Shown in pieces: positions 4,178 to 19,048 of a stretch of 36,649 nt of DNA. This DNA comes from a virus. The position numbers were made by a program, and so were the translations under genes. The notes beneath the pieces are model-generated. The model saw only the letters and a program-made list of their open reading frames with translations, was not told where the DNA came from and ran no database searches. The DNA lies in IMG/VR virus record IMGVR_UViG_3300030044_000046, positions 1-36,649 of that record. One strand, written 5' to 3'. Position 1 is the first letter of the stretch; every line of letters begins with the position of its first letter.

Positions 4178-4864
4178 ATGTTAACTAGAACCGAGAAACT
4201 AACTAAATTTAAGGAATGGTTAAATCATACCTCCCTAGATAAAGATATTGTTAAGAATAATATTGGAGTAGATGAGGATAAAATAAGTCCCCAAGTCTTA
4301 TTAGCTAGTTCAGCAAAATTAATTAAGATTAATAAAGGTGAGGTTGAAGGTGATGATCGAGATAACCTTAAATTCTCCAAATTTATGGGACTAGAGGATT
4401 TTATAGCCGACCATATAAATAAGGATGCAGGTAAAATACAACAAAAAGCAGCTTATAAAATGCAAATGAAAAAGAATCTTAACTGGCTTACTCCTGGTTT
4501 CTTCTCTCAGCAAGTCAGGTCGGTTATTGTAGGAAATCCTTTAGCTAATAACGTTGAAGGTATTAATCCATTAGAACACTTTGATAATAGTCATAAAGTA
4601 ACTAAGATGGGGCAGGGAGGAATTGTATCAGAGTCAGCAATACCAGATGAATCTAGAAATGTAAGTCCTTCTAGTTTTGGCTTTTATGATCCCGTTCATA
4701 TTGCAGAAAACACGAAGATAGGTGTTACTAATTATATAAATCAAAATGTAGCTAAAGGAGCAGATTGTAATTTATATAGGATTATGAAGGATAAGCACGG
4801 AAAACTTAAATGGATGAGTCACAAAGAAATTCTAGATAAACAAGTATTAATCCCTGAATACTAA
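4178..4864 (+). CDS. RNA polymerase beta subunit fragment (rifampicin pocket / fork region)
   Basis: A 228-residue protein colinear with the central part of bacterial RpoB. GEVEGDD and what follows (54-80) matches RpoB GKGEVDDIDHLGNRR. NPL..... to MGQGG (130-148) aligns without gaps to E. coli 519-537. NVSPSSFGFYDPVHIAENTKIG (161-182) matches the [20 protein letters not shown] segment. The protein stops shortly after this, at the position of the RpoB YVIAQA segment. The beta flap and catalytic C-terminus must therefore be encoded elsewhere, and the N-terminal lobes are a separate gene (18350-19048, opposite strand). Residues equivalent to rifampicin contacts are changed: Q513 to N124, D516 to E127, H526 to N137, R529 to K140, S531 to T142, I572 to T184. 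Split beta subunits are known in phiKZ-like giant phages. A fragment this small is unusual. Confidence 0.88.
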   Translation: MLTRTEKLTKFKEWLNHTSLDKDIVKNNIGVDEDKISPQVLLASSAKLIKINKGEVEGDDRDNLKFSKFMGLEDFIADHINKDAGKIQQKAAYKMQMKKNLNWLTPGFFSQQVRSVIVGNPLANNVEGINPLEHFDNSHKVTKMGQGGIVSESAIPDESRNVSPSSFGFYDPVHIAENTKIGVTNYINQNVAKGADCNLYRIMKDKHGKLKWMSHKEILDKQVLIPEY

Positions 4865-4868
4865 ATGA

Positions 4869-4884
4869 AAGAAGAGGGCTTCTT
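4869..4884. terminator. Short hairpin between convergent genes
   Basis: AAGAAG-AGGG-CTTCTT: a perfect 6-bp stem with a 4-base loop, sitting exactly between the stop of the beta fragment (plus) and the stop of the repeat protein (minus, stop codon inside the right arm). Probably a weak bidirectional terminator. The surrounding sequence AAATGAAAGAAGA recurs at 18032 at the next plus/minus junction. Confidence 0.4.
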
Positions 4885-6646
4885 AAACATTCGCCAATAA
4901 TTTAGATTTTCGAACCGGAAATCTACTTATAAATTTCTTATTAATCACACCTTCAACAAATGGGTTATTGTTGATATTACTGTCTAAAGCCAAGGCTGCT
5001 TCTAATACATTTACACTATAAATAATAGGTGGGGCATTAGTTGAAGCTGTATCAATTGCGGTAATAGATTCTAATACACTAGCTAGAGTTAATAGTGTGG
5101 CATCAGTATTATCTATAGCTGAGGCACTTTCAGACTCACTATTTATAGAACTTATAATAGCTGATAAACTATCCAAGGCTGAAGCTGTTTCAGTAATAGA
5201 AGTATTGAATAGTACTGAAGCTGAACTAGAATCACTTGCACTACCTGACTCTGTAATAGAACTTGTTAATAAATCATTAGCTGTAGGAGTATCATTAGCT
5301 GAGACTGACTCTGATATACTAGCTAATAGTGTAGAATTAGCTGTAGGGCTGTCTAGGGCTGTTCCTGACTCATTTATACTAACTTGATAAGTAGCAGTTG
5401 AGCTAGGACTATCAGAAGCACTGCCTGACTCCGTAATAGAAGCTGCTAATAAATCATTGGCTGAAGGATTGTCATTAGCTGAGACTGACTCTGATATAGT
5501 TACACTATAATTAGCAGTAGAACTAGGAGTATCAATTGTGGTAACTGATTCTGTGATAGAAGCTGCTAATAAATCATTGGCTGAAGGGTTATCTACTGCA
5601 CTACCTGATTCTGTAGTAGAACATGCATATATAGCAGTAGAACTAGGATTATCCGTTGCTGTTCCTGATTCTGTTATAGTTACTAAATAACCACCAACTA
5701 TACTATCTAGAGCTGAAGCTGATTCTGTTACACTAGCTTGTAGGGTAGAATTAGCTGAAGGAGAATCTGTTGCACTACCAGATTCACTAATACTTACACT
5801 GTATTTAGCAGTAGATGAAGGACTATCAGAAGCACTAGCAGCTTCACTTACTGAACCTGCAAATATAGCATTAGCAGAAGGGTTATCAGAAGCACTAGCA
5901 GATTCAGTTACACTTCCTGCAAATAAAGCATTAGCACTAGGATTATCTGAAGCTGAACCACTTTCTGATACTGTTGCTGCTAATAAATCATTAGCTGAGG
6001 GTGACTCTGTAGCTGAAGCAGATTCAGATATAGTTACTAAATAACCGCCAGCTGGACTATCTAGAGCTGAAGCAGACTCAGTTATGGACCCTGCAAATGT
6101 AGCTGTTGAACTAGGACTATCTACTGCACTATTAGATTCACTAGTACTAGCTTGAAGAGTAGAATTAGCTGAAGGATTGTCAGTTGCTGTACCACTTTCT
6201 GAAGTACTTGCAGCAAATATAGCATTAACAGAAGGACTATCTACTGCACTACCTGATTCTGTAGTAGAACCTGGATATATAGCAGTAGAACTAGGAGTAT
6301 CAGTAGCAGATGCAGATTCACTATCACTTGCTCCATATACAGCTATACTAGAAGGGCTATCTAGAGCTGAAGCTGATTCACTTACACTAACTAGATAAGT
6401 TTGAGAAGTAGGAATTGCTGTACCACCAGCAAATTGATTCTGAGCGAGATAAAAACCACCGAAAGTTACTGAAACTGTACCTGCTAAATCAACTGAATCT
6501 GAAGCTGAAGCTGTTTCTGTTACGGAAACATTATATACTGCTATACCACTAACTGAATCAACTGCACTAGCTGCCTCAATTACCCTATCTGGTAATGGAG
6601 GATCGCCACCAAAATAACCTTCTCCAAAGTATGAAGAGCCAAACAT
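4883..6646 (-). CDS. Repeat-rich appendage/tail protein with 20-residue S/T-E-S-A-S-A-x-D-S repeats
   Basis: A 587-residue protein. The N-terminus MFGSSYFGEGYFGG is of a type seen at the start of phage tail/fibre proteins. About 25 near-perfect 20-residue repeats of the form SxSESxSAxDSPSxxAxYxx follow from about residue 20. They are interrupted once (about 54-86) and shortened to 18 residues where PAGGYLV or IVGGYLV occurs. The C-terminus (INKKFISRFPVRKSK) is basic and non-repetitive. The composition (Ser, Ala, Thr, Asp) and the regular period suggest an elongated, surface-exposed beta-structured stalk or adhesin-like fibre. It ends the late fibre gene set and starts 4 bp after the stop of the SGNH-fibre gene, so the two are co-transcribed. 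Repeat number is likely to vary between relatives by recombination. Confidence 0.75.
   Translation of the reverse strand: MFGSSYFGEGYFGGDPPLPDRVIEAASAVDSVSGIAVYNVSVTETASASDSVDLAGTVSVTFGGFYLAQNQFAGGTAIPTSQTYLVSVSESASALDSPSSIAVYGASDSESASATDTPSSTAIYPGSTTESGSAVDSPSVNAIFAASTSESGTATDNPSANSTLQASTSESNSAVDSPSSTATFAGSITESASALDSPAGGYLVTISESASATESPSANDLLAATVSESGSASDNPSANALFAGSVTESASASDNPSANAIFAGSVSEAASASDSPSSTAKYSVSISESGSATDSPSANSTLQASVTESASALDSIVGGYLVTITESGTATDNPSSTAIYACSTTESGSAVDNPSANDLLAASITESVTTIDTPSSTANYSVTISESVSANDNPSANDLLAASITESGSASDSPSSTATYQVSINESGTALDSPTANSTLLASISESVSANDTPTANDLLTSSITESGSASDSSSASVLFNTSITETASALDSLSAIISSINSESESASAIDNTDATLLTLASVLESITAIDTASTNAPPIIYSVNVLEAALALDSNINNNPFVEGVINKKFISRFPVRKSKLLANV
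4990..6390 (-). repeat. Tandem 60-bp coding repeats
   Basis: About 23 contiguous units of roughly 60 bp (20 codons) within the fibre gene. Units are diverged at the DNA level but keep the ESxSAxDS core. A few units are 54 bp. Boundaries are approximate. Confidence 0.8.
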
Positions 6647-6650
6647 TTCA

Positions 6651-9600
6651 TTATGTTACAGTTATTGTCATTCCTACAGCTGGAGCTGTAGTAACTGCAG
6701 TACCAGCAGCTAATGCACTAAATTCATTAGGTAAAGCACCAGCAGCTACACTAGTTACTTTCCAAGCAATAGGTGAAGCAGTACCACCAGCGGCCAACCA
6801 CTGTGGCATATACGGACTAGGACCTCCAATTGTATTAACTATACTAGCAGTTGTACCGAGGGAATCTATCTTAAATACTTGCCAATAAAGTCCTGATCGT
6901 AGCCATCCAAAAGTATTAGTTCCAATAGTCTTTATAGCTGCAGTAGTTCCCATCGCAAATGCACCGCCTGATGTAACTTCATATCTAAGGTTACAAGGAT
7001 AACCTGTAAACATAGTATCATCATAAATACCAAATCTTACGTTAGATCCAGCTGTAGCAGGAGCATTGGTTTGTTGTACTTGGAATGCAGTAATATTAGC
7101 CCCACCTTCTGATACCCAGAAAGGAATAGCAAACGTATCACCAGCAACTGCAGTATATGTAGCACCCCAAACACCAAATTCAGGTAAATAAACATTACTA
7201 CCAGGACGAATAATATTTCGTTTAGGAGCGACTGGATAACCTTGTGGAGTCTGTGTCTCTAATACACCTAGAGTCCCTAAACCATCAGCAACAGGTACTA
7301 GCTTCTTAATAGCAGCAAATATAGCATTAGTTGCCAAAGCTGCTCCAACCGCATTAGGATGATAACCATCAGCAGATGTTGTATAGACGTTAGTAGGCAG
7401 AGTTCCAGTTCCACCAATCCCCATAGCTGTATTTACGTCAGCTAATTGAACCATTGAATCGAATGAATTAACTACTGTAGTAATTGTGCTATTTAAATTT
7501 TGTAAATCTGTGTCTGCTGCACTATGACTAGCTGGAGTTGCCCCACTAAAATCTGTATTAGTAGCATAATTAGCGTAACCGTTTAAAATACGCCCAAAAG
7601 TATATTTAATGGATGTAAAAGCACCAGTAGCATTTCCTGATAATACTATGGTGGTTGCATTAGTTACAGATGAAATAGTCTTACCAGAAGTAAAAGCACC
7701 TTGAGCATCAGTCTCAGTTATTGAATTTCCAGCATCAGTACTTGAATTAAAATTGGCTGAACCAGAAGTAAAAGAAGTAGTAACACCAGAAGTTACCCCA
7801 TCCCCTAAAGCGTAAGTAATAGTTCTACAATCACATTGATATACATTGGCTACAACTACAGGATTTGGTTTAAGAGATTCAATCCAGGCTGAATCTAATT
7901 GTACTGTCCCACTCGCAGTAGTTACCTTGATAGTAATAGTCTGACCAGCATTAGCAGCTGATAATCCATTAGTACCAGAAGTCCATCTAACGAATACAGG
8001 TCCATGAGCATCTATGGAAGTAGAGTTTAAAGTGGTAGTAGTTCCAATAATACCACTAGTTCCAGTAATATTTCCACCCCAAGTAACAATACCTGAAGTT
8101 GCTCCGGAAGTACCAACTAATAGAAATCCTATTGGTTCTCCTTTATAGCCAAATGGAATGGTGAAAGTTGCTGTAGAAGTACCACCAGAATCTACTACTG
8201 TTGCTTGCATTCCAACAGTAGACATCCACTCAAGGTTAGCTACTGGACCGGCTGCATAATTAGTACCAAAAGCCCATTGAGCTAACCCAGTGCCACAAGG
8301 AAAAATAGCTGAAGCTCTTATTCTACTAATAGCCATGGTTAAGGCTTGCGAAAATACTGAGCGCATTAATGATTGATTAGCTGATGTATTATTACCTAAA
8401 TCATTAATACCATATACAATTACAGATAAACCACCTTGTCGATAAAATGGAGAATATTTTTTGGTACGAGTTATTTCAGTTAAAAACCTCATATAACCGC
8501 CCATTAAACATCCTTGAGACGTAAGGTTTGCACCACTCCTAGCATGATTTCTTACTCTATCTTGAGAAATTCCCAAAGCATTTGTAAGTACGTTATTTAA
8601 TATTTCAGCAGGATCAGTAATTTGATTTGCGCCAGTAATATAAACTATATCATCAAGCCAGGAATGTCCCCAAAGATCAAGTTGGGTTATAGTAGGTGGT
8701 GGTGGACCGTAAGATATATTACCACTTCCATCATTCTGAAATACCCCTGGAGTATTGGCTACTGATGTTAAATTATCAGCTAAGTTAATGACTTTTCCTG
8801 TTGATACCGTACTACCAAAATATTGAGTATTCCAGGTACCAGCTGAAGTTCCATTACTAGTTAATACTAACTCTAAAAATGCTCCAGCTCCTACAATCCA
8901 TAAAGTAGTTCCACCATTCATATTTACAGTAACAGCTCCAGTTGAACTATTATCAATAAAGAATGACGCCCCATTAGAAAGTGTAGTGGCATTAGGTAGT
9001 ACACAAATCTGAGTTAATGTACCAGTAAAAATTATATAATTAGTAGCTGATCCACTTAATGTAGTTGTACTTCCAGCTGTAGCTACTGAAGAAAACCCTA
9101 ACACACCATAAGATGCTGTCGTTTGATAAGGTCCACCAGGCAAATCACCAGACGCTGCAATACTAGGAACACCAGTACCAGTAGTGTTTTTAAGTATACC
9201 GGTAGCAAGACCTGCTAATGAAGTACCGTTAATCTTTGCTACTGTAGGACCTGGATAACTACCTGATAAATCACCAGAAGCAGAGGCAGTAGCACCTAAA
9301 TATGGCCCACCAGGCAAATCACCAGACGCTGCAATACTAGGAACACCAGTACCAGTAGTATTCTTTAATAACCCTGTAGCTAATCCTGCTAAAGAAGTGC
9401 CGTTAATCTTTGCTACTGTAGGACCTGGATAACTACCTGATAAATCACCGCTAGCAGAACCATTAGGAGGTAACGTAGTAGGAATTGCATTTTCAATATC
9501 TGTAACTACCTTTTTAGTAACAGTATTGGCTATTTGGTATCCTACAGCAATAGATACAGCAGATGTTCCTTCTTGTGCTCTAGTTATAGTAAATGTATCA

Positions 9601-9803
9601 GTGGCAACTGCAGTAACCCTAATAATCTCAGCATTAACTGTAGTAGGTATAACACCTGAAGGCCAGACAGTGCAATTAAATGGGGGAGTAGGAAATAATG
9701 CACCCTGACCAGTAGTTACAGTTAGTGAAGTACCAGAAGTAGGTGGTGATGGAGCAGTGGCTACTTGTGATATTGCTAGATTTGAATGGGCATCAAAAGC
9801 CAT
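6651..9803 (-). CDS. Tail fibre protein with GDSL/SGNH hydrolase domain
   Basis: A 1050-residue fibre. Residues 1-105 (MAFDAHSNLA... ITRAQEGTSA) are a conserved phage fibre N-terminal domain, probably for attachment to the tail. Residues 117-174 and 175-229 are two copies of a GDLSGSYPGPTVAKINGT-type fibre repeat. Residues about 373-840 form an SGNH hydrolase: block I GHS (S381), oxyanion motif GIND (N467), and DGYHP with D812 and H815 completing a Ser-Asp-His triad. About 300 residues of beta-rich sequence are inserted between blocks III and V. The C-terminal 200 residues resemble a receptor-binding or trimerisation tip. Enzymes of this family remove acyl groups such as acetate from surface glycans, so the fibre probably modifies host polysaccharide during adsorption. 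It lies in a run of fibre genes with 3-4 bp gaps. Confidence 0.85.
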   Translation of the reverse strand: MAFDAHSNLAISQVATAPSPPTSGTSLTVTTGQGALFPTPPFNCTVWPSGVIPTTVNAEIIRVTAVATDTFTITRAQEGTSAVSIAVGYQIANTVTKKVVTDIENAIPTTLPPNGSASGDLSGSYPGPTVAKINGTSLAGLATGLLKNTTGTGVPSIAASGDLPGGPYLGATASASGDLSGSYPGPTVAKINGTSLAGLATGILKNTTGTGVPSIAASGDLPGGPYQTTASYGVLGFSSVATAGSTTTLSGSATNYIIFTGTLTQICVLPNATTLSNGASFFIDNSSTGAVTVNMNGGTTLWIVGAGAFLELVLTSNGTSAGTWNTQYFGSTVSTGKVINLADNLTSVANTPGVFQNDGSGNISYGPPPPTITQLDLWGHSWLDDIVYITGANQITDPAEILNNVLTNALGISQDRVRNHARSGANLTSQGCLMGGYMRFLTEITRTKKYSPFYRQGGLSVIVYGINDLGNNTSANQSLMRSVFSQALTMAISRIRASAIFPCGTGLAQWAFGTNYAAGPVANLEWMSTVGMQATVVDSGGTSTATFTIPFGYKGEPIGFLLVGTSGATSGIVTWGGNITGTSGIIGTTTTLNSTSIDAHGPVFVRWTSGTNGLSAANAGQTITIKVTTASGTVQLDSAWIESLKPNPVVVANVYQCDCRTITYALGDGVTSGVTTSFTSGSANFNSSTDAGNSITETDAQGAFTSGKTISSVTNATTIVLSGNATGAFTSIKYTFGRILNGYANYATNTDFSGATPASHSAADTDLQNLNSTITTVVNSFDSMVQLADVNTAMGIGGTGTLPTNVYTTSADGYHPNAVGAALATNAIFAAIKKLVPVADGLGTLGVLETQTPQGYPVAPKRNIIRPGSNVYLPEFGVWGATYTAVAGDTFAIPFWVSEGGANITAFQVQQTNAPATAGSNVRFGIYDDTMFTGYPCNLRYEVTSGGAFAMGTTAAIKTIGTNTFGWLRSGLYWQVFKIDSLGTTASIVNTIGGPSPYMPQWLAAGGTASPIAWKVTSVAAGALPNEFSALAAGTAVTTAPAVGMTITVT
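9117..9455 (-). repeat. Two direct 58-codon repeats in the fibre gene
   Basis: Codons 117-174 and 175-229 of the SGNH fibre encode nearly identical segments (ASGDLSGSYPGPTV...IAASGDLPGGPY). The DNA is also highly similar, suggesting recent duplication or recombination within the fibre gene. Confidence 0.8.
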
Positions 9804-9806
9804 ATA

Positions 9807-10400
9807 TTACATGCTAGTACTATATGATACTTGAATTGTATCACCAGGGTTAACAATCTTATCACCACCTGAGAATAGACCAGCAGACCAAAGAGTACCT
9901 GAAGTATTAGCAATAGTGGACGAAGCACCAGAGCCAAAGATAATAAAACATCCTTTAACTGTACCACCAGTAGTGATAATAGGAAAACTTAGAGCTGCGG
10001 AAAGTGAAATCGAACCAGCAGAAGCAGCAGACCAGGCACAAGTTTTTCTAGGAGTAGTGTATAATGGATAATTAGTGCTGGAACCTGCTTCCTTCCAACC
10101 ATTAGTACCATTAATTTGAGCAGCTGTATCACCAGCAGCTACGGTAGAATAAGATACTGAACTAATTAAACCCATATAAGGCCCAGTAACAGTATAAGCA
10201 GAGCCGTTTAAAAATGTATTAAAAGCCAGGTTTTTACCTTCAGTATTAACTACATTATCTATAGTATCTTCCCAAATTAAATTATTATTAGAGTCTATAC
10301 ATCTAGCAGTATAAACACCATGAGCTTCACAAGTTTCAGTGTGTTGGGCTCCTCTTAAAACAGTACAAGAATTATAATCAATCGCATTAGATGTTTCCAT
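9807..10400 (-). CDS. Conserved phage tail/fibre-associated protein
   Basis: A 197-residue protein of a conserved phage family recognisable by GVYTARCIDSNNNLIWED (28-45), then a VVNTEGKNLAFNTFL segment, then YMGLISS and AAGDTAAQINGTNGWKEA. Homologs of this layout lie beside tail-fibre genes in many phages, but I know of no proven function. A virion role is inferred from its place between two large fibre genes. Predicted soluble and beta-rich. The gene stops 3 bp before the SGNH-fibre start. Confidence 0.65.
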   Translation of the reverse strand: METSNAIDYNSCTVLRGAQHTETCEAHGVYTARCIDSNNNLIWEDTIDNVVNTEGKNLAFNTFLNGSAYTVTGPYMGLISSVSYSTVAAGDTAAQINGTNGWKEAGSSTNYPLYTTPRKTCAWSAASAGSISLSAALSFPIITTGGTVKGCFIIFGSGASSTIANTSGTLWSAGLFSGGDKIVNPGDTIQVSYSTSM

Positions 10401-10442: not shown

Positions 10443-13337
10443 TTAAGTTATTAGCGATATTAAAGCTGAAGTATCGGTAACAAATGCTGCACATATAGGA
10501 GATTGTACTACTTGACCTTGAGATACACTATTAGTAGAAGCAATAGCTAATGCTTGAACATCAACTCTTTCACTACATTGATATACTAAGGCATCACTTG
10601 TAAATATGGGCCAAAGAACTTGATTAGTTGTACCAGTATTATAAGTTGCAAATGGACTAAATACACTACTTCTAATACATCCTAAAGTTACAGCTACGGT
10701 TCCAGCAGTACTAGCTATTCTATTAATAGATACACTATATATCCACCAACCATAAGCTTTTCCTTTAGCTGGTGTATCAGTAGGACCTACTTGATGCCAA
10801 CCTTGATCAAAGCTAGGAGAATTATAAGTATTATATTGCCACTGATCATAAGCTCCCCAAATAGTATTACCGCTAGTAAGTGTAGGGGGCATCATTCTAG
10901 GAATTGTCTCACTATACCAATAAACAGGGTATCTAGGAAGTGGTGGGATTCTATGTTGGCCTGGTTGGAAAGCTTGATAACGAGAAGTAAATTTCCAGGT
11001 TATAGTATTATCAGTTACTGTACCTCCTAAAGTTCCAGGCCAGGCAGGTGCTGATGAATTACTAGTACCGGTATTTTGAGCAGTTTCAATATTACCGTTA
11101 GAATCTATTATAGTTTGTCCTGATTGAAATACTGTACTAGCTATCCAAGTAGTAGCCGGTGCAGTAAATACTTTAGAACAATGCCATACCACTCCATTAT
11201 CAGTAGTAGATCCACCAAATGCCCCAGACCAAACTGGATGTGAACCGCCAGATATACCACCTGTAAATACTGTTTGATAATTACCGTTAGAATCTATAAT
11301 TGTAAATCCAGACGTAAAATATATAGAAGCAGCCCAACTAGGAGGCTCGGATTGACTTTCTACTGGACTGAGTTGATTATATGAGTTAGATACTTGAGCA
11401 TAAGCACCAAACATACCTGAACCGTTAGGAGCCAAATCACCTTGTAGCATTGGATTTACTGTAGCATTACCGGCTACTGCATATTTAGTTCTAGTTAAAT
11501 TCCAAGGCATTGAAGTTAAACTAGGAATAGCTAAACTACTAATAGCAGGTGACATTGAAGACCAAAATCCAGCCTTACTAGTACCAATACTCCAACCATT
11601 ACCAAATATTTTTTCCGGATCATATGTAATAGCAGGAAATGTAGGGCCAGCTCCAGAATTCCAATTATTATTAGGTATATCCTGCACAAATAATAATCCT
11701 GGGCCGTGAGAAAGTCCATCACCAGGTAAGTTTATCTTTTTAATTGGCCATGCATTATCAATTCCATAAGCTGTAACTGCTGTACTATAACTAATACTGG
11801 CTGTGACAGGGCCAAATAATTTTCCATTGCCGCCGCTGCCATCATCTAGTGGGTTAGTGCCATTTGGGAAAAGGCGTGTATATGTGGTCTGTGTACCGGT
11901 TATAGGAACTGATGTGTCATCCGGTAATTGTGGTATGTCCACCTCAAGTTCATACCGCCCCGGTGCTAGAGTCGCGCTCACCGCTATTGAAATTTCGACA
12001 ATCCCAATACTACAAAATCCTGTATCAGCCACCAATGTAGAATAAGAAACTGAACCAGGAAATGCATTATAACCACCACTAGGAGATAGATTTACAGACC
12101 AAAGCGTATTAGGGTCAACTGTATCGGGTGTAATGGTTGTGGTTGGTCCAGGGTATGTTATCACAGCAGTCCCTCCACGCACATACTCCGCAGTTATATG
12201 GAAGGTCCCACTAACAAAGAGAGAATCAACACCACCAACCACAAAGGCTTGTCGTTGCTTTGTTGTTACTGGATAATAGTATGGTGATGGTGGAAACGTT
12301 GACAAAAGCATACTGCAAACGGCATTAGTTCTTAAACCTGCAGAAAAAGGTGCACCACTACCAGGGAAATTACTACTAATTGTAACTGTTGCTCCACCAC
12401 CAGTATCTTCAAAATAAAACCAGGTACTTGCATAATTATCATTTGGTCCACCTACAGGCCAGGGTCCAGAAACACACAATAATGAAGGTGAAGTAACATT
12501 CATAAATGTAAAAGAATCATCCAAATCCTTCAACCCCCAAATAGCACTACGAAGTCTATTTAGTTCAGCTAGCCAAGTAGGTCTTTGAGGAACTATAAAC
12601 AAACCACCAAAAGTTGCCCCACTACCGGTTCCACCACTAGCAGCTAAATATTGTGGAGTATTAGATAAGTATTGAAGAAATCCTATATAAGTAGTATTAG
12701 GTAATGTGAATGTTAATATCTTGCCACTACCATCAACACTTACAACATGTACTGGAACTGGACTGCCACCAACTATCTTAGCTCCAGGCAAAGTTAAATT
12801 ATCGCCAGCAGTATAACCAGTACCTCCAAAACAAAGATAAAAATCGGTAAAATAACCATTACCAGGATTATAGTCTGGAAATGAATAATTTTGAGAAGGG
12901 CCTACTTGACTAACAGTAAAAGTAATAGTAGCTCCAGTACCAGAACCAGTTACTGTATTAAGTGCGCCAGGAGTAGGGTCTGTATATGAAGGGAATGGAG
13001 GTGTGGTAGTCAGATCACCGGAAGGAGAAAAGGCAGAATTAGTATAAGTTACCAATCCTATAATAGCTCCAGTAATATCTACTGAACCAACTTCAAAATA
13101 TGTAGTATAGCCTGGGGAAACTACTATATCTCCAACAGCATAACCACTTCCTCTAGCAGTTAAAGCAAAAGCACCACAAATACGATAACCATATGGATTA
13201 CTACTTAAGTCATAAAACATTGGATACACATAATAAAATGTACTCAAGTCAAAACTAGTAGATGAGACTGCATTAGCTTGAGTTGCTAATGCTTGTAAAT
13301 CAGTTAATTTAAAGTTATTACCAGGAGCTACAGACAT
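10443..13337 (-). CDS. Large fibre/appendage protein with carbohydrate-binding-like modules
   Basis: A 964-residue Gly/Ser/Thr/Pro-rich protein with no catalytic motif that I recognise. In its C-terminal half are two similar modules of about 55 residues, each reading W.AS..F.SG.TIIDSNGN, then a gap, then P.W.G..GG...DN...W. The gene immediately upstream (13341-15161) contains the same IIDxNGNxQT module once. Such modules occur in phage receptor-binding fibres. The N-terminal half has Gly-rich segments such as GGTGYTAGDNLTLPG that are typical of fibre shafts. It starts 3 bp after the stop of the 606-residue gene. A short non-coding gap of 42 bp separates it from the next gene. Confidence 0.65.
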   Translation of the reverse strand: MSVAPGNNFKLTDLQALATQANAVSSTSFDLSTFYYVYPMFYDLSSNPYGYRICGAFALTARGSGYAVGDIVVSPGYTTYFEVGSVDITGAIIGLVTYTNSAFSPSGDLTTTPPFPSYTDPTPGALNTVTGSGTGATITFTVSQVGPSQNYSFPDYNPGNGYFTDFYLCFGGTGYTAGDNLTLPGAKIVGGSPVPVHVVSVDGSGKILTFTLPNTTYIGFLQYLSNTPQYLAASGGTGSGATFGGLFIVPQRPTWLAELNRLRSAIWGLKDLDDSFTFMNVTSPSLLCVSGPWPVGGPNDNYASTWFYFEDTGGGATVTISSNFPGSGAPFSAGLRTNAVCSMLLSTFPPSPYYYPVTTKQRQAFVVGGVDSLFVSGTFHITAEYVRGGTAVITYPGPTTTITPDTVDPNTLWSVNLSPSGGYNAFPGSVSYSTLVADTGFCSIGIVEISIAVSATLAPGRYELEVDIPQLPDDTSVPITGTQTTYTRLFPNGTNPLDDGSGGNGKLFGPVTASISYSTAVTAYGIDNAWPIKKINLPGDGLSHGPGLLFVQDIPNNNWNSGAGPTFPAITYDPEKIFGNGWSIGTSKAGFWSSMSPAISSLAIPSLTSMPWNLTRTKYAVAGNATVNPMLQGDLAPNGSGMFGAYAQVSNSYNQLSPVESQSEPPSWAASIYFTSGFTIIDSNGNYQTVFTGGISGGSHPVWSGAFGGSTTDNGVVWHCSKVFTAPATTWIASTVFQSGQTIIDSNGNIETAQNTGTSNSSAPAWPGTLGGTVTDNTITWKFTSRYQAFQPGQHRIPPLPRYPVYWYSETIPRMMPPTLTSGNTIWGAYDQWQYNTYNSPSFDQGWHQVGPTDTPAKGKAYGWWIYSVSINRIASTAGTVAVTLGCIRSSVFSPFATYNTGTTNQVLWPIFTSDALVYQCSERVDVQALAIASTNSVSQGQVVQSPICAAFVTDTSALISLIT

Positions 13338-13340
13338 AAT

Positions 13341-15161
13341 TTATAACCAGGTAGCATAAGAACAGGCTTGAAACCAGCCAGTACCAGTATCAGGACTATT
13401 AGTATTAGAATTTATTAAACATATATACATACCAGACGAAGTACCTGCCCCTAATACTGCAACATCATTAAGATTATAAGTAGATAATGCACTCCAAACT
13501 CCTCGATAATTAAGCCCGGAACCAGCTGGACTTATTGTAATTGTAGCACTGGAAGTAGTACCACTTAAAGTACCACCTACAAAAGTAAGCATCTGTGCCC
13601 CATTTAATGTAGTAGTGCCATCAGTTAACTTAGTTCCAGTTACGGTAGCTGCCCCACTAGTACCTCCAACTGTCATTCCATTAAAAGTAATATTAGATAC
13701 ATTACTTAAACTTGTAGTACCATCAGTTATTCCTAAACTTGAAGCACTGCTAAATGAAAATGAACCAGAAGGAGTTATACCACAAGTAGTAGGAGTTACA
13801 GTTAAATAGCTGCTAGTAGTAGGAGAACCACTAGAAATAGATAATGTAGTAGTTCCACCTGAAGTAGAAGAATTTAAATACCAATTAACAAAATTACCAG
13901 GAGCACAACCAGGAACTATTAGATTACCTAGATTTGATAATCCTAAACAAGCTGAGGGGGTTATTTGAAAAGGTGTATTTCCTCCACCAGTCTGACTAAC
14001 TGTATTTCCTAATACATCCTTTACACTAGTTACTGAAACTGCGTTTGCTGTATAACCTGAAGCACATTTTAAAGCCGGGAAACTTATATTAGTAATACCA
14101 AAATTTAAATTACAAGAACTAATAGATAACGCAATAGTTGGATCACCTACTGGAGCACTATAACCTATATCACCAGGGAATAAAAAGGTAGCTGTCCCAC
14201 TACCTCCTACACTTAAACCTGATGGACAAACAATACCTAATTCAAGATTACCTAACAATACTGAACCGCAATCTTTGGTAGTAGGGGGAATTCCATGTAT
14301 TAATCTATAATAATCATACTGACTTAAAACATCAACATAAGCATAGTTACTTATTGATGCTTGAGACATGGTCCAGGTAACATTATGATCTACAGTAGTA
14401 CCAGATATAGCCCAGGTAGGAGCAGTTACACCGGATGTACCATCACCAGTAATAGCAGTGACTGTTTGTAGATTTCCATTAGTATCAATTATGCTCTGTC
14501 CTATAGAATAAACCCTTGAATATAAATATGTTATTACTGGTGGTAGAGCTGTACTATTATTTAGATTTACCGTTACATTGCTCTGAAATGAAATACCAGC
14601 TGCGCAATTAGGGGTTGGTAGATTTATTATAGTATCAATATTCCAGGTACAAGGCTGGGTTATATCTCCACTAATTCTAGTAGTGCTTAATGAAAAATCA
14701 TCTGCAATTGGAGAACCATCACCAACCATCTTAAACTGTAAAACTCCACTAAATAAAGGACCAGTAGGATAGCAAGGTATAATTAGTGTAGGTGGGATGT
14801 CTAAATTAAAATGACAAACATCAACTCCTGGAGTTATACCTACAGTAATAGAAGTATAAGGAATCATTCCAGAAGTATTTAATATCCCTATAGCTTGAGT
14901 ATTAGGAGTAAATGAAATACCTGAAGGGCAATTCTCAGGTAATGGAAAGGGTTCTGGTACTAATGGAAATTGTACGAATAAAGGTACACAAGCTTTTACA
15001 TTAGATGGTGGTGTGACTGCTCCGATAGTAGGAGGTGTGAGCAATGCTGGTAAAGTACATCCAGAACTAGGAATACTACTAGACGGTTGTGGTATATACT
15101 GTGCTTGATGATTAGTAGAATTAGTTACCTCAATCAAGCTATCTATGAAACTATTACTCAT
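13341..15161 (-). CDS. Fibre/appendage protein with IIDxNGN and CBM-like modules
   Basis: A 606-residue beta-rich virion protein. It contains one IIDTNGNLQT module (about residues 225-270) also present twice in the next gene. Its C-terminus (YRGVWSALSTYNLNDVAVLG, then MYICL and TGTGWF) looks like the small aromatic carbohydrate-binding module of chitinase/CBM5-12 type. A run of TLSNV/TLNG repeats at about 480-540 resembles a fibre shaft. Together these suggest a host-glycan-binding fibre. Its ATG overlaps the stop of the upstream membrane-protein gene (ATGA), so translation is coupled. Confidence 0.65.
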   Translation of the reverse strand: MSNSFIDSLIEVTNSTNHQAQYIPQPSSSIPSSGCTLPALLTPPTIGAVTPPSNVKACVPLFVQFPLVPEPFPLPENCPSGISFTPNTQAIGILNTSGMIPYTSITVGITPGVDVCHFNLDIPPTLIIPCYPTGPLFSGVLQFKMVGDGSPIADDFSLSTTRISGDITQPCTWNIDTIINLPTPNCAAGISFQSNVTVNLNNSTALPPVITYLYSRVYSIGQSIIDTNGNLQTVTAITGDGTSGVTAPTWAISGTTVDHNVTWTMSQASISNYAYVDVLSQYDYYRLIHGIPPTTKDCGSVLLGNLELGIVCPSGLSVGGSGTATFLFPGDIGYSAPVGDPTIALSISSCNLNFGITNISFPALKCASGYTANAVSVTSVKDVLGNTVSQTGGGNTPFQITPSACLGLSNLGNLIVPGCAPGNFVNWYLNSSTSGGTTTLSISSGSPTTSSYLTVTPTTCGITPSGSFSFSSASSLGITDGTTSLSNVSNITFNGMTVGGTSGAATVTGTKLTDGTTTLNGAQMLTFVGGTLSGTTSSATITISPAGSGLNYRGVWSALSTYNLNDVAVLGAGTSSGMYICLINSNTNSPDTGTGWFQACSYATWL

Positions 15162-15538
15162 TTATTCATTAGTTTAACCAAAATATAGTACATTAGCAAA
15201 CTAAAGTAAGCTGCTATAAATATACTTACAGGAATAAATATTAAAGGAAAATCTATAAATACGATAATAGGAATATGTAATAGTATAGATAACCAGACTA
15301 CTATACATTTGGGACAACTAATAATTTTTACAAGGAAGTTAGACCGATTAGCAGCTAAATATTCTAGATAAGACAAACTAGGGTCATCTACAGTAATATT
15401 ATTGTATTCTTCTATATAAAAGAACTTAGTCAATCTTAGTAAATTCATATATTCAACAAAAGTATTATTAAACCATATAACTAAAAACATGGCTATACTT
15501 GCACTTAATAATAGGTATGAAATTAAAATATCAATCAT
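15158..15538 (-). CDS. Membrane protein with CPKC motif
   Basis: A 126-residue protein with an N-terminal membrane segment (about 4-24), a central acidic loop, then the motif SCPKCIVVW at about 74-82 followed by two hydrophobic segments (about 80-118). The CPxC-next-to-membrane arrangement resembles DUF1360-type small phage membrane proteins. Function is unknown. A role at the host membrane is inferred only from the hydrophobic segments. It follows a strong hairpin terminator and is coupled by ATGA to the downstream fibre gene. Confidence 0.6.
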   Translation of the reverse strand: MIDILISYLLLSASIAMFLVIWFNNTFVEYMNLLRLTKFFYIEEYNNITVDDPSLSYLEYLAANRSNFLVKIISCPKCIVVWLSILLHIPIIVFIDFPLIFIPVSIFIAAYFSLLMYYILVKLMNK

Positions 15539-15547
15539 ATAAATAAA

Positions 15548-15582
15548 ATGAGGCTAAACTACATTAAATAGCCTAGCCTCAT
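15548..15582 (-). terminator. Hairpin terminator downstream of the 15598 gene
   Basis: ATGAGGCTA (15548-15556) pairs with TAGCCTCAT (15574-15582), a perfect 9-bp stem. On the minus strand it is followed by TTTATTT. An alternative shorter stem AGGCTA/TAGCCT is nested inside. It separates the coiled-coil genes from the membrane/fibre operon. Confidence 0.65.
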
Positions 15583-15597
15583 ATTACTTCAATCTAT

Positions 15598-15792
15598 TTA
15601 ATCGTCAATACTCTTTTGAGCATTCTTTACAACTTCTGCTTCTTCATTCAGAATATCCTTAATTTCAGATTTAATCCGTTTAATATTTTCTGAATGCATC
15701 TTACTAGTAGCTTTCTTTTCTTCCTCTGCTTCCAACTGTTCTATATAAAGGTTGTATATTCTAGTCTTGGTGTCATTTAGCGTTATAGCCAT
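15598..15792 (-). CDS. Small coiled-coil protein
   Basis: 64 residues, almost entirely charged helix (heptad-like EQLEAEEEKKATSKMHSENI). No family is recognised. It lies 3 bp after the stop of another coiled-coil gene and is followed by a terminator, so the two form a small transcription unit between capsid-decoration and fibre genes. It may be a virion assembly or chaperone protein, which is inference from position only. Confidence 0.55.
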   Translation of the reverse strand: MAITLNDTKTRIYNLYIEQLEAEEEKKATSKMHSENIKRIKSEIKDILNEEAEVVKNAQKSIDD

Positions 15793-15795
15793 AAT

Positions 15796-16050
15796 TTATT
15801 TAGTCTCTTCTTTAGGTGTGTCTACCGTCTTACTTAGTATATCTTGTATCAATTGTTTCTGTCCTACTATAATCAACTGCATTCTCTTCCATTCATTCAA
15901 TTTATTTGTAGCATCATCTATATTAGATTGTAAACTAGTTAAACTAGTATCTGCTTGTGCCAAATAACCCTGCAATAACTTAACTATCTGCTCAGTCGAC
16001 ATCTTAAAATTAGGTATCACTGGTGTGTCTAACGTAGCTTGTTCATTCAT
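15796..16050 (-). CDS. Coiled-coil protein, start chosen at MNEQ
   Basis: Start at ATG 16050 (MNEQATLDTP), giving 84 residues. An ATG at 16062 is possible. A start at 16098 would lie inside the upstream terminator hairpin and is rejected. Residues about 17-75 form a helical, coiled-coil-like region (QIVKLLQGYLAQADTSL, SNIDDATNKLNEWKRM). No family is recognised. A TTGACA promoter lies just upstream. It is probably co-expressed with the 15598 gene. Confidence 0.55.
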   Translation of the reverse strand: MNEQATLDTPVIPNFKMSTEQIVKLLQGYLAQADTSLTSLQSNIDDATNKLNEWKRMQLIIVGQKQLIQDILSKTVDTPKEETK

Positions 16051-16057
16051 GTTTAGT

Positions 16058-16086
16058 ATCATTTCAAAATAGAGGAAAGTTGTCAA
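16058..16086 (-). promoter_or_regulatory. Sigma70-like promoter for the coiled-coil genes
   Basis: Minus strand TTGACA (16086-16081), 17-bp spacer and AATGAT (16063-16058). It lies between the terminator of the decoration gene and the ATG at 16050. The -10 box is poor; the -35 is perfect and shares TTGACAAC with the promoter at 3390. Confidence 0.4.
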
Positions 16087-16087
16087 A

Positions 16088-16118
16088 TAAAAAAGCAACC
16101 TAAGTAAATAGGTTGCTT
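16088..16118 (-). terminator. Strong rho-independent terminator of the decoration-protein gene
   Basis: AAGCAACCTA (16093-16102), 6-base loop, TAGGTTGCTT (16109-16118): a perfect 10-bp stem, followed on the minus strand by TTTTTTAT. It sits 20 bp after the stop of the 16138-17271 gene. With the promoter at 17350 it makes that gene a single-gene, probably highly expressed, unit. Confidence 0.85.
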
Positions 16119-16137
16119 TGTGATAAGATTAAATAGC

Positions 16138-17271
16138 TTACTGAGGTTGCAAGATAACAGTACCAGTCAACCCAGCCAAACCTGTGACAGTACCAGTAAA
16201 TCTAAGGGCCAAAGCCTGTCCAGTAGTTATTTGAGTATTAGCAATAGTGGCATTCAAAGTACCAATTTGTACAATACCCGGACTTGCAGTGAGTGGGATG
16301 GTAGCAGTAAACACATTAGTACCATAAGCTGGCACACCAATAAACAAGGTGCTATATGACCAAGTTGTAGCAGCTGCATTAAAAGCAGCATTGGCGGTTA
16401 GAGTAAGAGATGTAGTACTATTAACGGAAGCAATCACACCAAGAGTTCTACCATATTGATCATACAAGTTACTACCAACTGTAACAGAACTAGCAAAACC
16501 AGCAGCAGTAACAGTCACAGCAGAAGTTGCAGTAGACGCAGTAAGGTTACCAGTACCAGTAAGATAAGGGCCGTAATTCCAGGCAGAACCAGTCAATACC
16601 TGAGTACCACCACCCCATGCATTAGAAGCAGCCACAGCCAATGTAAGAGAGGTTGTGCTACCTACAGCTGAGACTGTACCAATATAAGTACCTGAAGGAC
16701 TGAAAATTGCGGAACCAATTAGTGCAGAAGTAAATGTAGTACTAACACCATTAACAGTAGCAGAAGAGTTAGTAGTAGTAATAGTACCAGCACCAGCTAA
16801 TATACCTTGAGAGAAAGGACATACACCTAACTGAAGTGCACAAGAAGAGCCACCAGGAGTAGTATATACAAATGAACCACTCAATACGTTATAAGGACGG
16901 TCAGCTACATAAACATATTGATCAATAGCATTAGCGGCGAGGGGGACATTGATATCTAGTGGATTGTTACCAACTGGAGTCCACTGCGTGCCTGTATTAA
17001 TGTAAGCCTGACCAGTTTCACGGAGTCTACTAATACCACTTGTATCAGTATAAGTGAAATAATACCCAGATGGATTTAAACAAAATCTGATACCACCAGC
17101 AAAAAATCCAGCTGCTGTGGCTTGAGCACCAGCAAAGCCAGTACCACCAGGGTTATTTTGTTGTGAACCAGGAGTCAAAACTCCAGGCAATGTACCAGGC
17201 TTAGGGTTAGCATTACCAGAAGTTGGAGCTAAAACTGCTGATGTCCTTCTAATACTAGAGGCGTCTGACAT
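16138..17271 (-). CDS. Probable head decoration / major virion protein
   Basis: A 377-residue Ser/Thr/Gly-rich protein. The middle YVYVADRPYNVLS (about 118-130) and the C-terminal pattern IGTLNATIAN....TGQALALRFTGTVT (about 340-370) match a phage virion family often described as head decoration or head-fibre proteins. Two related segments of about 60 residues (about 155-215 and 235-300, each ending S.TSLTL) look like an internal duplicated beta domain inserted into the core. It has its own promoter and a strong terminator, and base composition somewhat less AT-rich than neighbours, consistent with an abundant structural protein. The exact virion role is inferred. Confidence 0.6.
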   Translation of the reverse strand: MSDASSIRRTSAVLAPTSGNANPKPGTLPGVLTPGSQQNNPGGTGFAGAQATAAGFFAGGIRFCLNPSGYYFTYTDTSGISRLRETGQAYINTGTQWTPVGNNPLDINVPLAANAIDQYVYVADRPYNVLSGSFVYTTPGGSSCALQLGVCPFSQGILAGAGTITTTNSSATVNGVSTTFTSALIGSAIFSPSGTYIGTVSAVGSTTSLTLAVAASNAWGGGTQVLTGSAWNYGPYLTGTGNLTASTATSAVTVTAAGFASSVTVGSNLYDQYGRTLGVIASVNSTTSLTLTANAAFNAAATTWSYSTLFIGVPAYGTNVFTATIPLTASPGIVQIGTLNATIANTQITTGQALALRFTGTVTGLAGLTGTVILQPQ

Positions 17272-17321
17272 AGATTGTATAATTAGTTAAAATAAACATA
17301 ATTGTTTATTCGTATATTTCT

Positions 17322-17350
17322 ATATTAACTATTATTATAAGTTTAGTCAA
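17322..17350 (-). promoter_or_regulatory. Sigma70-like promoter for the decoration protein
   Basis: Minus strand TTGACT (17350-17345), 17-bp spacer, TAATAT (17327-17322). It is 50 bp upstream of the ATG at 17271, leaving a short AT-rich leader. Correct spacing and good boxes. Confidence 0.55.
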
Positions 17351-17357
17351 CAGATAT

Positions 17358-18056
17358 ATGCGCTATAATATTGACAGCGTGGTAGCTAATGTGTACTGTC
17401 ATTATATGGATTTAACTAATATAACAGCAGAGACAGCATATACGTTAGGATTTATCTGGGCCGACGGGTCTATATCTAAAGAAAATAAAATTAAAATAGC
17501 TATAAAACAAGTTGATGCAGTAATTATTGAACCAACACTTATGAAAGCCTGGAATTGGAATATACGTAGAAATATACAAAAAACAAATCCACCAGGGCAA
17601 TTACAAATGAGTTTTCAAAAAGGTAGTGTAGAATTAGCAACTAAATTAATTAGTTACAATTATAGAAGTAAAGATCAAGCTCCTACAATATTAAGCATTA
17701 TACCTGAAAACCTAACTCATTACTGGTGGAGGGGTTACAGTGATGGGGATGGTTGTTTTTGTATATCCAGAGATGGTCATTGTTCTTATAGTATTTGTGG
17801 TCCCTACACTCAAGATTGGTCTGCTTTTGAGAAATTAGTATTACCTATGGAGATTCATTATAGAATAGGGAGGGAGATTAATAAAAAAACTGGACATAAG
17901 GGTTCTAGAATAGTTATACCTAGCATTTGTGGTGGTTATAAATTCGGTAACTATATTTATCAAGGCTTTCTAGAAGACAGAATTGGACTGACTAGAAAGT
18001 ATGAGAAATATCTACAATTCAACTTACCAAGAAATGAAAGAAGAAGGCCTGCTTAA
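17358..18056 (+). CDS. LAGLIDADG-family homing endonuclease (free-standing)
   Basis: A 232-residue protein with two LAGLIDADG-like helices: TLGFIWADGSI (about 29-38, acidic D36) and RGYSDGDGCF (about 125-134, acidic D129/D131). The two-motif single-chain layout predicts a monomeric site-specific DNA endonuclease that spreads its own gene. A second possible start is the Met at 17406 (MDLTNITAE). It is on the plus strand between minus-strand virion genes, is not inside an intron or intein that I can see, and its stop overlaps the stop of the 18053-18337 gene. Its natural target is probably in a related phage at this intergenic position. Confidence 0.8.
   Translation: MRYNIDSVVANVYCHYMDLTNITAETAYTLGFIWADGSISKENKIKIAIKQVDAVIIEPTLMKAWNWNIRRNIQKTNPPGQLQMSFQKGSVELATKLISYNYRSKDQAPTILSIIPENLTHYWWRGYSDGDGCFCISRDGHCSYSICGPYTQDWSAFEKLVLPMEIHYRIGREINKKTGHKGSRIVIPSICGGYKFGNYIYQGFLEDRIGLTRKYEKYLQFNLPRNERRRPA
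18032..18056. other. Junction motif shared with position 4863
   Basis: AAATGAAAGAAGA followed by AGGCCTGCTTAA here, and by GGGCTTCTTAA at 4863-4886. Both copies lie exactly where a plus-strand insert ends against the stop codon of a minus-strand gene. Confidence 0.4.
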
Positions 18057-18337
18057 CTATGATGTACAAGCAGTAAAGTCTGAATACACCAGCCCGCAAA
18101 AATTAATATCACATTTACGGCTACCAATACTCCAGTAGTTTTAGCTTTAGATAATTCAAGTTTTTCGACCTTTTCTCTCAGACTTTTTACTTCATCTGCT
18201 TGAGCACAACTTAGCTTAATATCAGTAATATCCTTAGCTAATTGTTTTTGACCAGTCCTGAGTTCTTCAAGATTATCTTTAATAGTTTTTCTCCATTCAG
18301 CATTCAATTGCTGTTCTAATTGTGTTTCGTTCGACAT
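18053..18337 (-). CDS. XhlA-like coiled-coil protein with C-terminal membrane anchor
   Basis: A 94-residue protein. A charged coiled-coil spans about residues 5-65, followed by one C-terminal membrane segment (about 68-90, VLVAVNVILIFAGW). This matches the layout of haemolysin XhlA/holin-associated small phage proteins, which act with holins or anchor lysis proteins. Sequence alone does not prove a lysis role. It is the last gene of the ejection/RNA polymerase operon, 12 bp after the stop of the beta N-terminal fragment. No endolysin is evident nearby. Confidence 0.55.
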   Translation of the reverse strand: MSNETQLEQQLNAEWRKTIKDNLEELRTGQKQLAKDITDIKLSCAQADEVKSLREKVEKLELSKAKTTGVLVAVNVILIFAGWCIQTLLLVHHS

Positions 18338-18349
18338 ATATTTGAGTAG

Positions 18350-19048
18350 TTATTCTTCTTCATTACCTATGACTTTATTATACAATTTATCAAATTCTAG
18401 TCCAGTATATTGAGATTTATTTTTATTGAATATTTCAGAACCCCAAACTTTCTCCATCTCACTATCAGATACGCCCATTTCTTTAAGTAATCCATATAGC
18501 TTAATTTGAGTAGTTCCAACTTGATAAACGAATAATGCACGGTCAGGGTAAAAAATTACTTTGCCACCTACTCCAGTTCCAGGTAAGACATTGATGTGGG
18601 CTTCAGCTTCTCCAGATTCCTTAGTACGAGTATAGACACCTGGTAGTAAACGTTGTTGATGTGCAACTGAGTATTCCGCACCATGTAAGATTACTGTATT
18701 CCTTTCAGTAAGCCAGGGGATATGAGCGATAGTTGTAGTTTTGGTATCTAATACATTACCAGTTTTCTTATCTATCATCTGAAAAGTACCTCGTAATGGA
18801 GTGGACAAATCTCTTTTCTCCATTATAGCCTTATTTTGTTCTTTATAAGTTGGAGAATGTTCAGGAGCATTATAAGATAAGTCTGTTACTTTTAGTTTGT
18901 AGGCTGGACTTTCAATTGTATTAAGCTTCTTCTGAAAAGAATCCAAGGCTTTAGTATGTAACCATTCCCTAGTCTTCTCTGGATCGAAAAAACCACGCAC
19001 ATTCTTTGGAATAGGCAAACTATATAATGGATCTATATGATTGTTCAC
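18350..19048 (-). CDS. RNA polymerase beta subunit N-terminal fragment
   Basis: A 232-residue protein matching the N-terminal protrusion/lobe region of bacterial RpoB. STPLRGTFQ (82-90) corresponds to the segment where RpoB reads T-x-x-APL. IAHIPWLTERNTVILHGAE (107-125) matches GEIPLMTDNGTFVINGTE, and HQQRLLPGV (130-138) matches SQLHRSPGV. KVIFYPDRALFVYQV and LLKEMGVSDSEME match the lobe segment that in RpoB ends LRALNYTTEQI. The protein stops in the lobe, just where the 4178-4864 protein begins in alignment, so the two are adjacent pieces of one beta chain encoded 14 kb apart on opposite strands. Rifampicin-side residues R143 and V146 are replaced by Y126 and A129. It lies in a tight operon with ejection-type proteins, which suggests a virion-packaged polymerase. 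Catalytic motifs are not in this piece. Confidence 0.85.
   Translation of the reverse strand: MNNHIDPLYSLPIPKNVRGFFDPEKTREWLHTKALDSFQKKLNTIESPAYKLKVTDLSYNAPEHSPTYKEQNKAIMEKRDLSTPLRGTFQMIDKKTGNVLDTKTTTIAHIPWLTERNTVILHGAEYSVAHQQRLLPGVYTRTKESGEAEAHINVLPGTGVGGKVIFYPDRALFVYQVGTTQIKLYGLLKEMGVSDSEMEKVWGSEIFNKNKSQYTGLEFDKLYNKVIGNEEE

What the first reader, a model, noticed from the sequence alone, without database searches (positions are those of the whole stretch)
4178..19048. RNA polymerase beta subunit split into at least three pieces on opposite strands
Two short genes match consecutive parts of bacterial RpoB: 18350-19048 (minus) the N-terminal protrusion/lobe, and 4178-4864 (plus) the segment from GKGEVDD through the fork/rifampicin region. 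The first ends in alignment about where the second begins. The second stops before the flap and catalytic C-terminus, which must be elsewhere. PhiKZ-like giant phages split beta and beta' into two genes each. A beta chain cut into three or more small pieces, with 14 kb and a strand switch between two of them, would be a new arrangement.
Basis: partly seen in the sequence, partly recalled or inferred. Interest (0 to 1): 0.9.

Follow-up and report, generated by a model that had tools for sequence, protein, structure and literature searches.

The report
Phage RNA polymerase beta in three pieces
An uncultured bacterial virus, and at least seven related ones, encode one large subunit of their RNA-copying enzyme as three separate proteins from scattered genes on opposite DNA strands, an extreme natural dissection of one of life's most conserved machines.

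Summary
The finding holds. Gene 18350-19048(-) encodes the start of RpoB (protrusion plus first part of the lobe; E. coli 50-224). Gene 4178-4864(+) encodes the next segment through the fork (E. coli 420-597). In relatives such as Salmonella phage Arash gp206 the two stretches are neighbours in one 1,525-aa protein.

The window is part of a 151-kb contig, G001. There I found the missing third piece: beta from about residue 639 to its end, fused to the N-half of beta'. The C-half of beta' is a further gene. Each beta domain was found once. Eight distinct related phages share the layout, with lobe and fork genes on opposite strands in 8 of 8. Purifying selection, no intron found and little or no room for inteins at the cuts argue for separate chains that assemble non-covalently. 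Arash's homologue is the most-detected protein in its particles, so this is probably a virion RNA polymerase.

Split phage polymerases are known; one paper states beta is in three pieces in phiKZ-type virion enzymes. The cut sites and the beta-C/beta'-N fusion differ here. New variant of a known kind.

Beyond the window, the catalytic DxDGD motif is interrupted by an intein that looks naturally split.

The parts
18350..19048 (-). beta piece 1 (232 aa, GTG start): protrusion N-part plus first part of the lobe, E. coli RpoB about 50-224
   Evidence: orthologues in 7 further phages, 49-77% identical by tblastn in six and by profile in G012
4178..4864 (+). beta piece 2 (228 aa): end of lobe, second part of protrusion, fork region, E. 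coli RpoB about 420-597
   Evidence: orthologues in 7 further phages, 46-78% identical
3436..4176 (+). neighbour just before the fork gene (1-base gap), phrog_19005, function unknown; not part of the enzyme
   Evidence: directly before the fork gene in G002, but directly before the third piece in the G013 locus
17358..18056 (+). LAGLIDADG-like homing endonuclease gene near the lobe gene; weak match; not needed for the split
   Evidence: E 0.006, below cut-off

Best explanation
The phage encodes one multisubunit RNA polymerase whose beta subunit is made as three chains: lobe (18350-19048-), fork (4178-4864+) and a beta-C chain that continues into the N-half of beta' (G001 57238-60033-, outside the window; in the window's strain interrupted by an intein). 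The C-half of beta' is a further chain. The chains fold onto each other without being joined: from domain limits that I recall, the protrusion and the lobe are each built from parts of chains 1 and 2, and the fork of chain 2 packs against the catalytic barrel of chain 3. Shown: homology, complementarity without overlap, single copy in the contigs searched, conservation in a clade, purifying selection. Inferred: non-covalent assembly, catalytic activity, and (from Arash) packaging in the virion to transcribe early genes after injection. How it arose is open; insertion of mobile introns and inteins followed by gene relocation is plausible but not shown.
For: Profile matches to consecutive parts of RpoB and RNA polymerase matches in fold search. 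Abutting pieces on fused homologues. Third piece and beta'C found in G001 and G002. Rpb2 domains once per contig: PF04565 in 6 of 7 contigs (the 7th, G003, ends about 10 kb from its lobe gene, on the side where the fork gene is expected), PF00562 in 7 of 7. Eight distinct phages with lobe and fork genes on opposite strands in 8 of 8; they form one clade, support 100/100. Nonsynonymous differences per site 0.11-0.26 against synonymous 0.70-0.91; dN/dS about 0.06 in the pairs where dS could be computed at all (fork 2 of 6, lobe 1 of 6, these near saturation). Pieces end within 0-4 residues of the homology and begin at their own start codons (7 lobes, 8 forks). No Rfam match in the window up to E 1. 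Arash gp206 is the most-detected protein in its particles, 3516 spectra (PMC10585845, passages).
Against: No biochemistry, expression or mass-spectrometry data were found for this clade. Virion location rests on Arash, whose lobe and fork are only about 26-31% identical, and its authors also allow that such enzymes might be carry-over from infected cells. The lobe protein alone gives no Pfam hit and its model matches PDB chains with a TM-score of only 0.3-0.4. Completeness of the contigs is not given, so a second polymerase elsewhere cannot be excluded. The x of DxDGD is Ser, Asn or Thr in the five uninterrupted members read, where a review calls it bulky (PMC7598289), so activity needs testing.
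Confidence: 0.87

Rival explanations
1. The pieces are rejoined after expression, by trans-splicing of split introns or by split inteins, into one ordinary beta chain.
For: Relatives do carry group I introns and inteins in these genes: a group I intron lies at the break between beta parts in Vibrio phage D181, and inteins or intein-like inserts sit in beta' of G001 and in other relatives.
Against: No Rfam match of any kind in the window up to E 1, and none at gathering score in the G001 and G002 stretches with the third piece. Lobe pieces end 0-4 residues after the homology, leaving no room for an N-intein. Fork pieces begin 3-4 codons after a stop in G004 and G008, leaving no room for a C-intein; in others 9-67 codons are open upstream, but each has a start codon at the homology. 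No intein family on either protein.
Confidence: 0.04
2. Lobe and fork proteins are decaying or repurposed fragments (for example decoys that bind host polymerase), not parts of a phage enzyme.
For: Small proteins, and the lobe is strongly diverged (no Pfam hit).
Against: They are exactly the parts missing from the phage's own beta-C/beta' chain, are kept together in 8 of 8 phages, and change at the same nonsynonymous rate as the catalytic chain (pN 0.147-0.153 in all three, window against G002).
Confidence: 0.06
3. The separation or inversion is an assembly artefact.
For: Metagenomic contigs; long simple repeats lie elsewhere in the window.
Against: The same strain shows both genes about 14 kb apart on opposite strands in three contigs (the window, G001, G005), and seven other phages at 46-78% identity (fork) show the same opposite orientation with different spacing.
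Confidence: 0.01

Closest known systems
Salmonella phage Arash RNA polymerase (gp206 + gp216), detected in its particles
   Same: Homologous over all pieces; beta-C fused to beta'-N; beta' cut after the catalytic barrel.
   Different: In Arash lobe, fork and beta-C are one 1,525-aa chain; here three genes.
phiKZ-type virion and non-virion RNA polymerases
   Same: beta and beta' in several chains, no alpha, beta' cut after the catalytic barrel (PMC7598289, PMC7824862, PMC8287921: passages).
   Different: Weak matches put fork and catalytic barrel in one chain in phiKZ gp178, and beta and beta' parts are listed as separate chains; here lobe and fork are separate and beta-C is fused to beta'-N; only one polymerase set was found. 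The cut of the phiKZ non-virion beta could not be placed by sequence.
Vibrio phage D181 polymerase (D69 and D148 gave like hits and were not opened)
   Same: Homologous, beta over more than one ORF.
   Different: In D181 the break coincides with a group I intron, and lobe+fork are one ORF on the same strand as the rest.
mReC, multi-subunit RNAP-encoding Caudovirales (Weinheimer and Aylward 2020, PMC7481178)
   Same: Uncultured tailed phages with beta and beta' (abstract, passages and one section read).
   Different: The text says that beta' of 12 RefSeq phages was typically fragmented, and the word 'split' does not occur in it; whether our contigs are in their set was not tested.

Membership tests
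Multisubunit (two-barrel) RNA polymerase | beta lobe/protrusion, fork, beta catalytic barrel, beta' with DxDGD, beta' C-half, all encoded | tested here: met
   G001 and G002; in G001 the DxDGD motif is interrupted by an intein
Arash-type phage RNA polymerase | homologous beta-C fused to beta'-N in one chain | tested here: met
   G002 985-aa protein matches Rpb2_6, Rpb1_2 and, below its cut-off, Rpb1_1; the G001 copy is interrupted by an intein
Arash-type phage RNA polymerase | whole beta in that same chain | tested here: not met
   lobe and fork are separate genes in 8 of 8 phages
Arash-type phage RNA polymerase | enzyme present in the virion | not testable with these tools
   reported for Arash by mass spectrometry (PMC10585845, passages)
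phiKZ-type jumbo-phage RNA polymerases | beta' cut after the catalytic barrel | tested here: met
   beta'N match ends near RpoC 519, beta'C match begins near 572
phiKZ-type jumbo-phage RNA polymerases | same beta cut sites as the virion enzyme (fork with catalytic barrel) | tested here: not met
   phiKZ gp178 matches the fork (4.4e-4) and the barrel (2.9e-7) in a search of nine proteins; here they are apart
phiKZ-type jumbo-phage RNA polymerases | same beta cut site as the non-virion enzyme (gp123 | gp71-73) | tested here: inconclusive
   no convincing match of the lobe or fork profile to gp123
phiKZ-type jumbo-phage RNA polymerases | two polymerase sets per phage | tested here: inconclusive
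   one set found per contig, contig completeness not given
Intron-interrupted gene (as in D181) | recognisable self-splicing intron at the break, parts on one strand | tested here: not met
   opposite strands
mReC clade | falls in the deep-branching RNAP clade of that study | not tested
   their contig list was not held

The most novel reading that the evidence does not exclude
In the window's own strain the polymerase core is put together from at least five separately translated chains, one bond of which is made by protein trans-splicing inside the catalytic centre: the beta-C/beta'-N chain ends ...GYGAD plus a 13-residue intein N-fragment, and a separate 573-aa chain carries the rest of the intein (with a homing endonuclease) followed by SDGDQLN..., so that only trans-splicing restores the Mg-binding ADSDGD motif found uninterrupted in G013, G015 and G016. 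With the non-covalent lobe, fork and beta'C (itself carrying an uninterrupted mini-intein in the presumed trigger loop) the core would be as finely cut as the at least five-chain phiKZ virion enzyme, but at other places and with a splicing step in the active site.
Probability: 0.4. Interest if true: 0.87.

Novelty: new variant of a known kind. Interest (0 to 1): 0.72.

Why it matters
It shows how far the most conserved transcription subunit can be cut in nature, and where: one cut lies in the lobe (E. coli 224-420), the other between fork and catalytic barrel (597-639). Because relatives carry the uncut chain, the system lets one test directly how a multisubunit enzyme survives fission and gene scattering, whether the extra chains are used for regulation or assembly control, and how a phage polymerase without a recognised alpha subunit assembles. 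It also gives small, separately expressible pieces of beta.

Tried and rejected
Pfam on the lobe protein alone gave nothing; the profile of 50 relatives was needed. PHROGs gave phrog_24349 (unknown function, 1191 positions, 4e-5) and weakly phrog_9058 (0.081) for the lobe and nothing for the fork.

Idea that the LAGLIDADG gene next to the lobe caused the split: not supported. It is only a weak match, and the split is shared by phages down to 46-51% identity.

Idea of a stepwise path (first fork | beta-C, then lobe | fork) with L146/L147/L154 as the intermediate (lobe and fork fused; beta-C 4-6 kb away in L146 and L147, not seen in the held stretch of L154): the lobe+fork tree joins them to the split clade with weak support (81/47), the beta-C tree puts L146/L147 elsewhere (SH-aLRT 95). 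Left open.

Idea that a second group (L145, L149, L161, L166, L190), where lobe and fork are neighbouring or nearby ORFs on one strand, is an independent split: the best trees need two changes, but the AU test does not reject one origin (p 0.233). Left open.

Sigma (PF04542): only below-cut-off matches in 3 of 7 contigs, two of them the same strain; control rang in 11 of 14 genomes. Alpha (PF01000): 0 of 7 contigs; control rang in 13 of 14.

Rows dropped: contigs of the window's strain other than the chosen pair and the twin L142 were left out, and rows with under 180 residues of either domain; of the 155 rows then left, 39 were dropped as sharing the same lobe stretch and state, leaving 116. 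The careful tree used 54 rows: four long-branch rows, and one-ORF rows at 72% identity or more to a row already kept, were dropped. The lobe scan kept the best 80 of 138. The beta-C tree holds 47 rows, one of them from the second group. In the lobe+fork trees G012 had its fork only.

Literature: searches gave no paper, among the listings and passages that I saw, describing a beta cut into lobe, fork and beta-C/beta'-N chains; most papers of subscription journals and most preprints are outside that library.

Full report
WHAT WAS CHECKED. The plus-strand protein matches Pfam Rpb2 domain 3 above its cut-off (1.1e-5) and the end of domain 2 weakly; the minus-strand protein matches no Pfam family on its own. 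Profiles built from relatives settle it: 48 fork sequences hit 53 distinct PDB sequences at E up to 0.01, all bacterial-type beta or archaeal B subunits, best 2e-21; 50 lobe sequences hit 51 at E up to 0.1, all beta, best 1.1e-15. In E. coli numbering the pieces match RpoB 50-224 and 420-597. Predicted structures have mean pLDDT 86.8 (lobe) and 78.2 (fork), and the 50 listed PDB matches of each are RNA polymerase or transcription-complex entries; the lobe model superposes only in part (TM 0.3-0.4).

THE REST OF THE ENZYME. The window lies in a 151,189-base contig (G001) with 99.997% identity over its whole length. Searching G001 with Arash gp206 and gp216 finds the lobe and fork once each, a 931-aa ORF (57238-60033, minus) covering gp206 from about residue 484, a following ORF with the last stretch of gp206, and beta'C at 50816-53155. 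The profile of the third piece matches RpoB from about 639 to 1338 and then RpoC up to about 519; the G001 protein matches Pfam Rpb2_6, Rpb1_2 and, just below its cut-off, Rpb1_1. In the 134-kb relative G002 the third piece is one 985-aa protein and beta'C one 636-aa protein. In terms of beta the cuts therefore fall at E. coli 224-420, inside the lobe domain, and at 597-639, between fork and catalytic barrel. I recall, without a call, that the first region is where E. coli beta carries a lineage-specific insertion and where engineered splits were tolerated.

A CLADE, NOT AN ACCIDENT. Eight distinct phages (window strain/G001, G002, G004, G008, G012, G013 with its twin G014, G015, G016) have the lobe and fork as separate genes, on opposite strands in 8 of 8, 3.5 to 13.5 kb apart. 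The third piece was seen in six of them: on the fork's strand in five and on the lobe's strand in G012. Where PF04565 and PF00562 were sought, each occurs once per contig; PF04565 is missing only from G003, a contig of the window's strain that ends about 10 kb from its lobe gene. In the lobe+fork tree of 54 rows these eight are one clade (100/100), and likewise in the beta-C tree for the six with that piece (SH-aLRT 100). Of the 116 rows compared, 103 have lobe and fork in one ORF, 8 are this clade and 5 are another group with the two in separate ORFs on one strand. Neighbouring genes are conserved widely in the G002 and G004 loci and only patchily in the G012, G013 and G016 loci.

WHY SEPARATE CHAINS. 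Nonsynonymous differences are few beside synonymous ones (0.11-0.26 against 0.70-0.91 per site over 6 fork and 6 lobe pairs). dN/dS is 0.059 and 0.060 for the fork in the two of six pairs, and 0.065 for the lobe in the one of six, where dS could be computed; even there dS is 2-3, near saturation. Lobe ORFs end 0-4 residues after the homology (7 read); fork ORFs begin with a start codon at the homology (8 read), in G004 and G008 only 3-4 codons after a stop, in the rest 9-67 codons after one. That leaves little or no room for intein halves. Rfam finds nothing in the window up to E 1, whereas it does find group I introns in D181, one of them at the break of its beta gene. So the parsimonious reading is non-covalent assembly, as for the split beta and beta' of phiKZ, whose five-chain non-virion enzyme initiates transcription without alpha or omega (PMC8287921, passages). 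No alpha family match was found in 7 contigs.

WHAT IT PROBABLY DOES. Arash gp206 is the most-detected protein in purified Arash particles (3516 spectra) and gp216 has 1210; the authors name early transcription as one possible role and carry-over from infected cells as another explanation (PMC10585845, passages). By homology the enzyme of this clade is probably carried in the virion and injected to start phage transcription; only one polymerase set was seen, so it may also serve later. This is inference.

PRIOR ART. Split phage polymerases are known. Sokolova et al. 2020 (PMC7598289, passages) count at least five chains for jumbo-phage virion enzymes, two of them beta. Iyer et al. 2021 (PMC7824862, passages) describe beta in three polypeptides in phiKZ-group virion enzymes: N-part, barrel, C-extension. 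In phiKZ itself gp178 gives weak matches to fork and barrel together, so the cuts differ from ours; the cut of the phiKZ non-virion beta could not be placed with our profiles. Weinheimer and Aylward 2020 (PMC7481178, passages and one section) described uncultured tailed phages with beta and beta'; membership of our contigs there was not tested. I found no paper with the present arrangement.

A SECOND STRANGE THING NEXT DOOR. In G001 the beta'N chain stops 13 residues after GYGAD, and a separate ORF holds intein motifs, a LAGLIDADG endonuclease and ...GGYTKN followed by SDGDQLN. G013, G015 and G016 have GADSDGD, G002 GADNDGD and G012 LDTDGD, all uninterrupted. Both relevant frames contain stops between the halves, and four contigs with different IMG dataset numbers agree letter for letter over the stretch that each holds, so it is not a simple sequencing slip; whether the samples are independent is not known to me. 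In G018, a relative outside the split clade, an intein-like insert a few residues further on is one open frame, by eye. A natural split intein is the best guess; a decayed intein is the rival. beta'C carries a second, uninterrupted mini-intein (CLAEGTLV...LIVHN, then SKHKGG) in what I take to be the trigger-loop region.

VERDICT. Observation confirmed; interpretation supported, with the corrections that piece three is fused to beta' and that a three-piece beta has been stated before for other phages with other cuts.

Noticed in passing
G001 55485-57238 (L058 15485-17238), about 6.6 kb beyond the window's right end: An intein interrupts the catalytic DxDGD motif of beta' and is itself divided into two ORFs by stops in both frames, with a TTGACA-17-TATTGT promoter-like stretch between them (by eye); four contigs agree letter for letter.
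   Followed up: partly
G001 50816-53155 (P0011): Mini-intein (CLAEGTLV...LIVHN, then S) inside beta'C in the presumed trigger-loop region; absent from G002.
   Followed up: partly
G001 61060-63960 (its last 161 bases lie in the window, 36489-36649): SNF2-type helicase gene interrupted in its GSGK motif by an insert with homing-endonuclease domains that looks like an intein (motif by eye).
   Followed up: no
L216, L240, L241, L242, L243: The variable residue of the catalytic DxDGD motif is Asn, Ser, Ser, Ser and Thr in these five members of the clade, where most relatives have Phe or Tyr.
   Followed up: partly
L145, L149, L161, L166, L190: Another group with lobe and fork in separate ORFs on one strand; all five lobe ORFs (496-608 aa) run well past the lobe homology, and three fork ORFs carry intein-like inserts; in G018 (L161) the matched parts of beta and beta'N are spread over about 25 kb.
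   Followed up: partly
L019 13584-13864: Group I intron at the break of the beta gene in Vibrio phage D181, whose two parts are annotated as separate hypothetical proteins.
   Followed up: yes
window 3436-4176 and L141 3158-3925: The phrog_19005 gene sits directly before the fork gene in the window but its relative (30% identical) directly before the beta-C gene in the G013 locus, a possible trace of a former fork/beta-C neighbourhood.
   Followed up: no
window 27794-28115 and 28721-28944: Two long arrays of 6-base (12-base) CCTGAC-like repeats beside small ORFs.
   Followed up: no
window 29653-30495 (+): Protein with an OST-HTH/LOTUS domain above cut-off and, just below cut-off, IF2_N and cold-shock domains, an unusual combination.
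   Followed up: no
window 4178-4864, residues 124-142: By eye on the alignment several positions of the rifampicin pocket (as I recall it) differ from E. coli, so the enzyme is probably rifampicin-insensitive.
   Followed up: no
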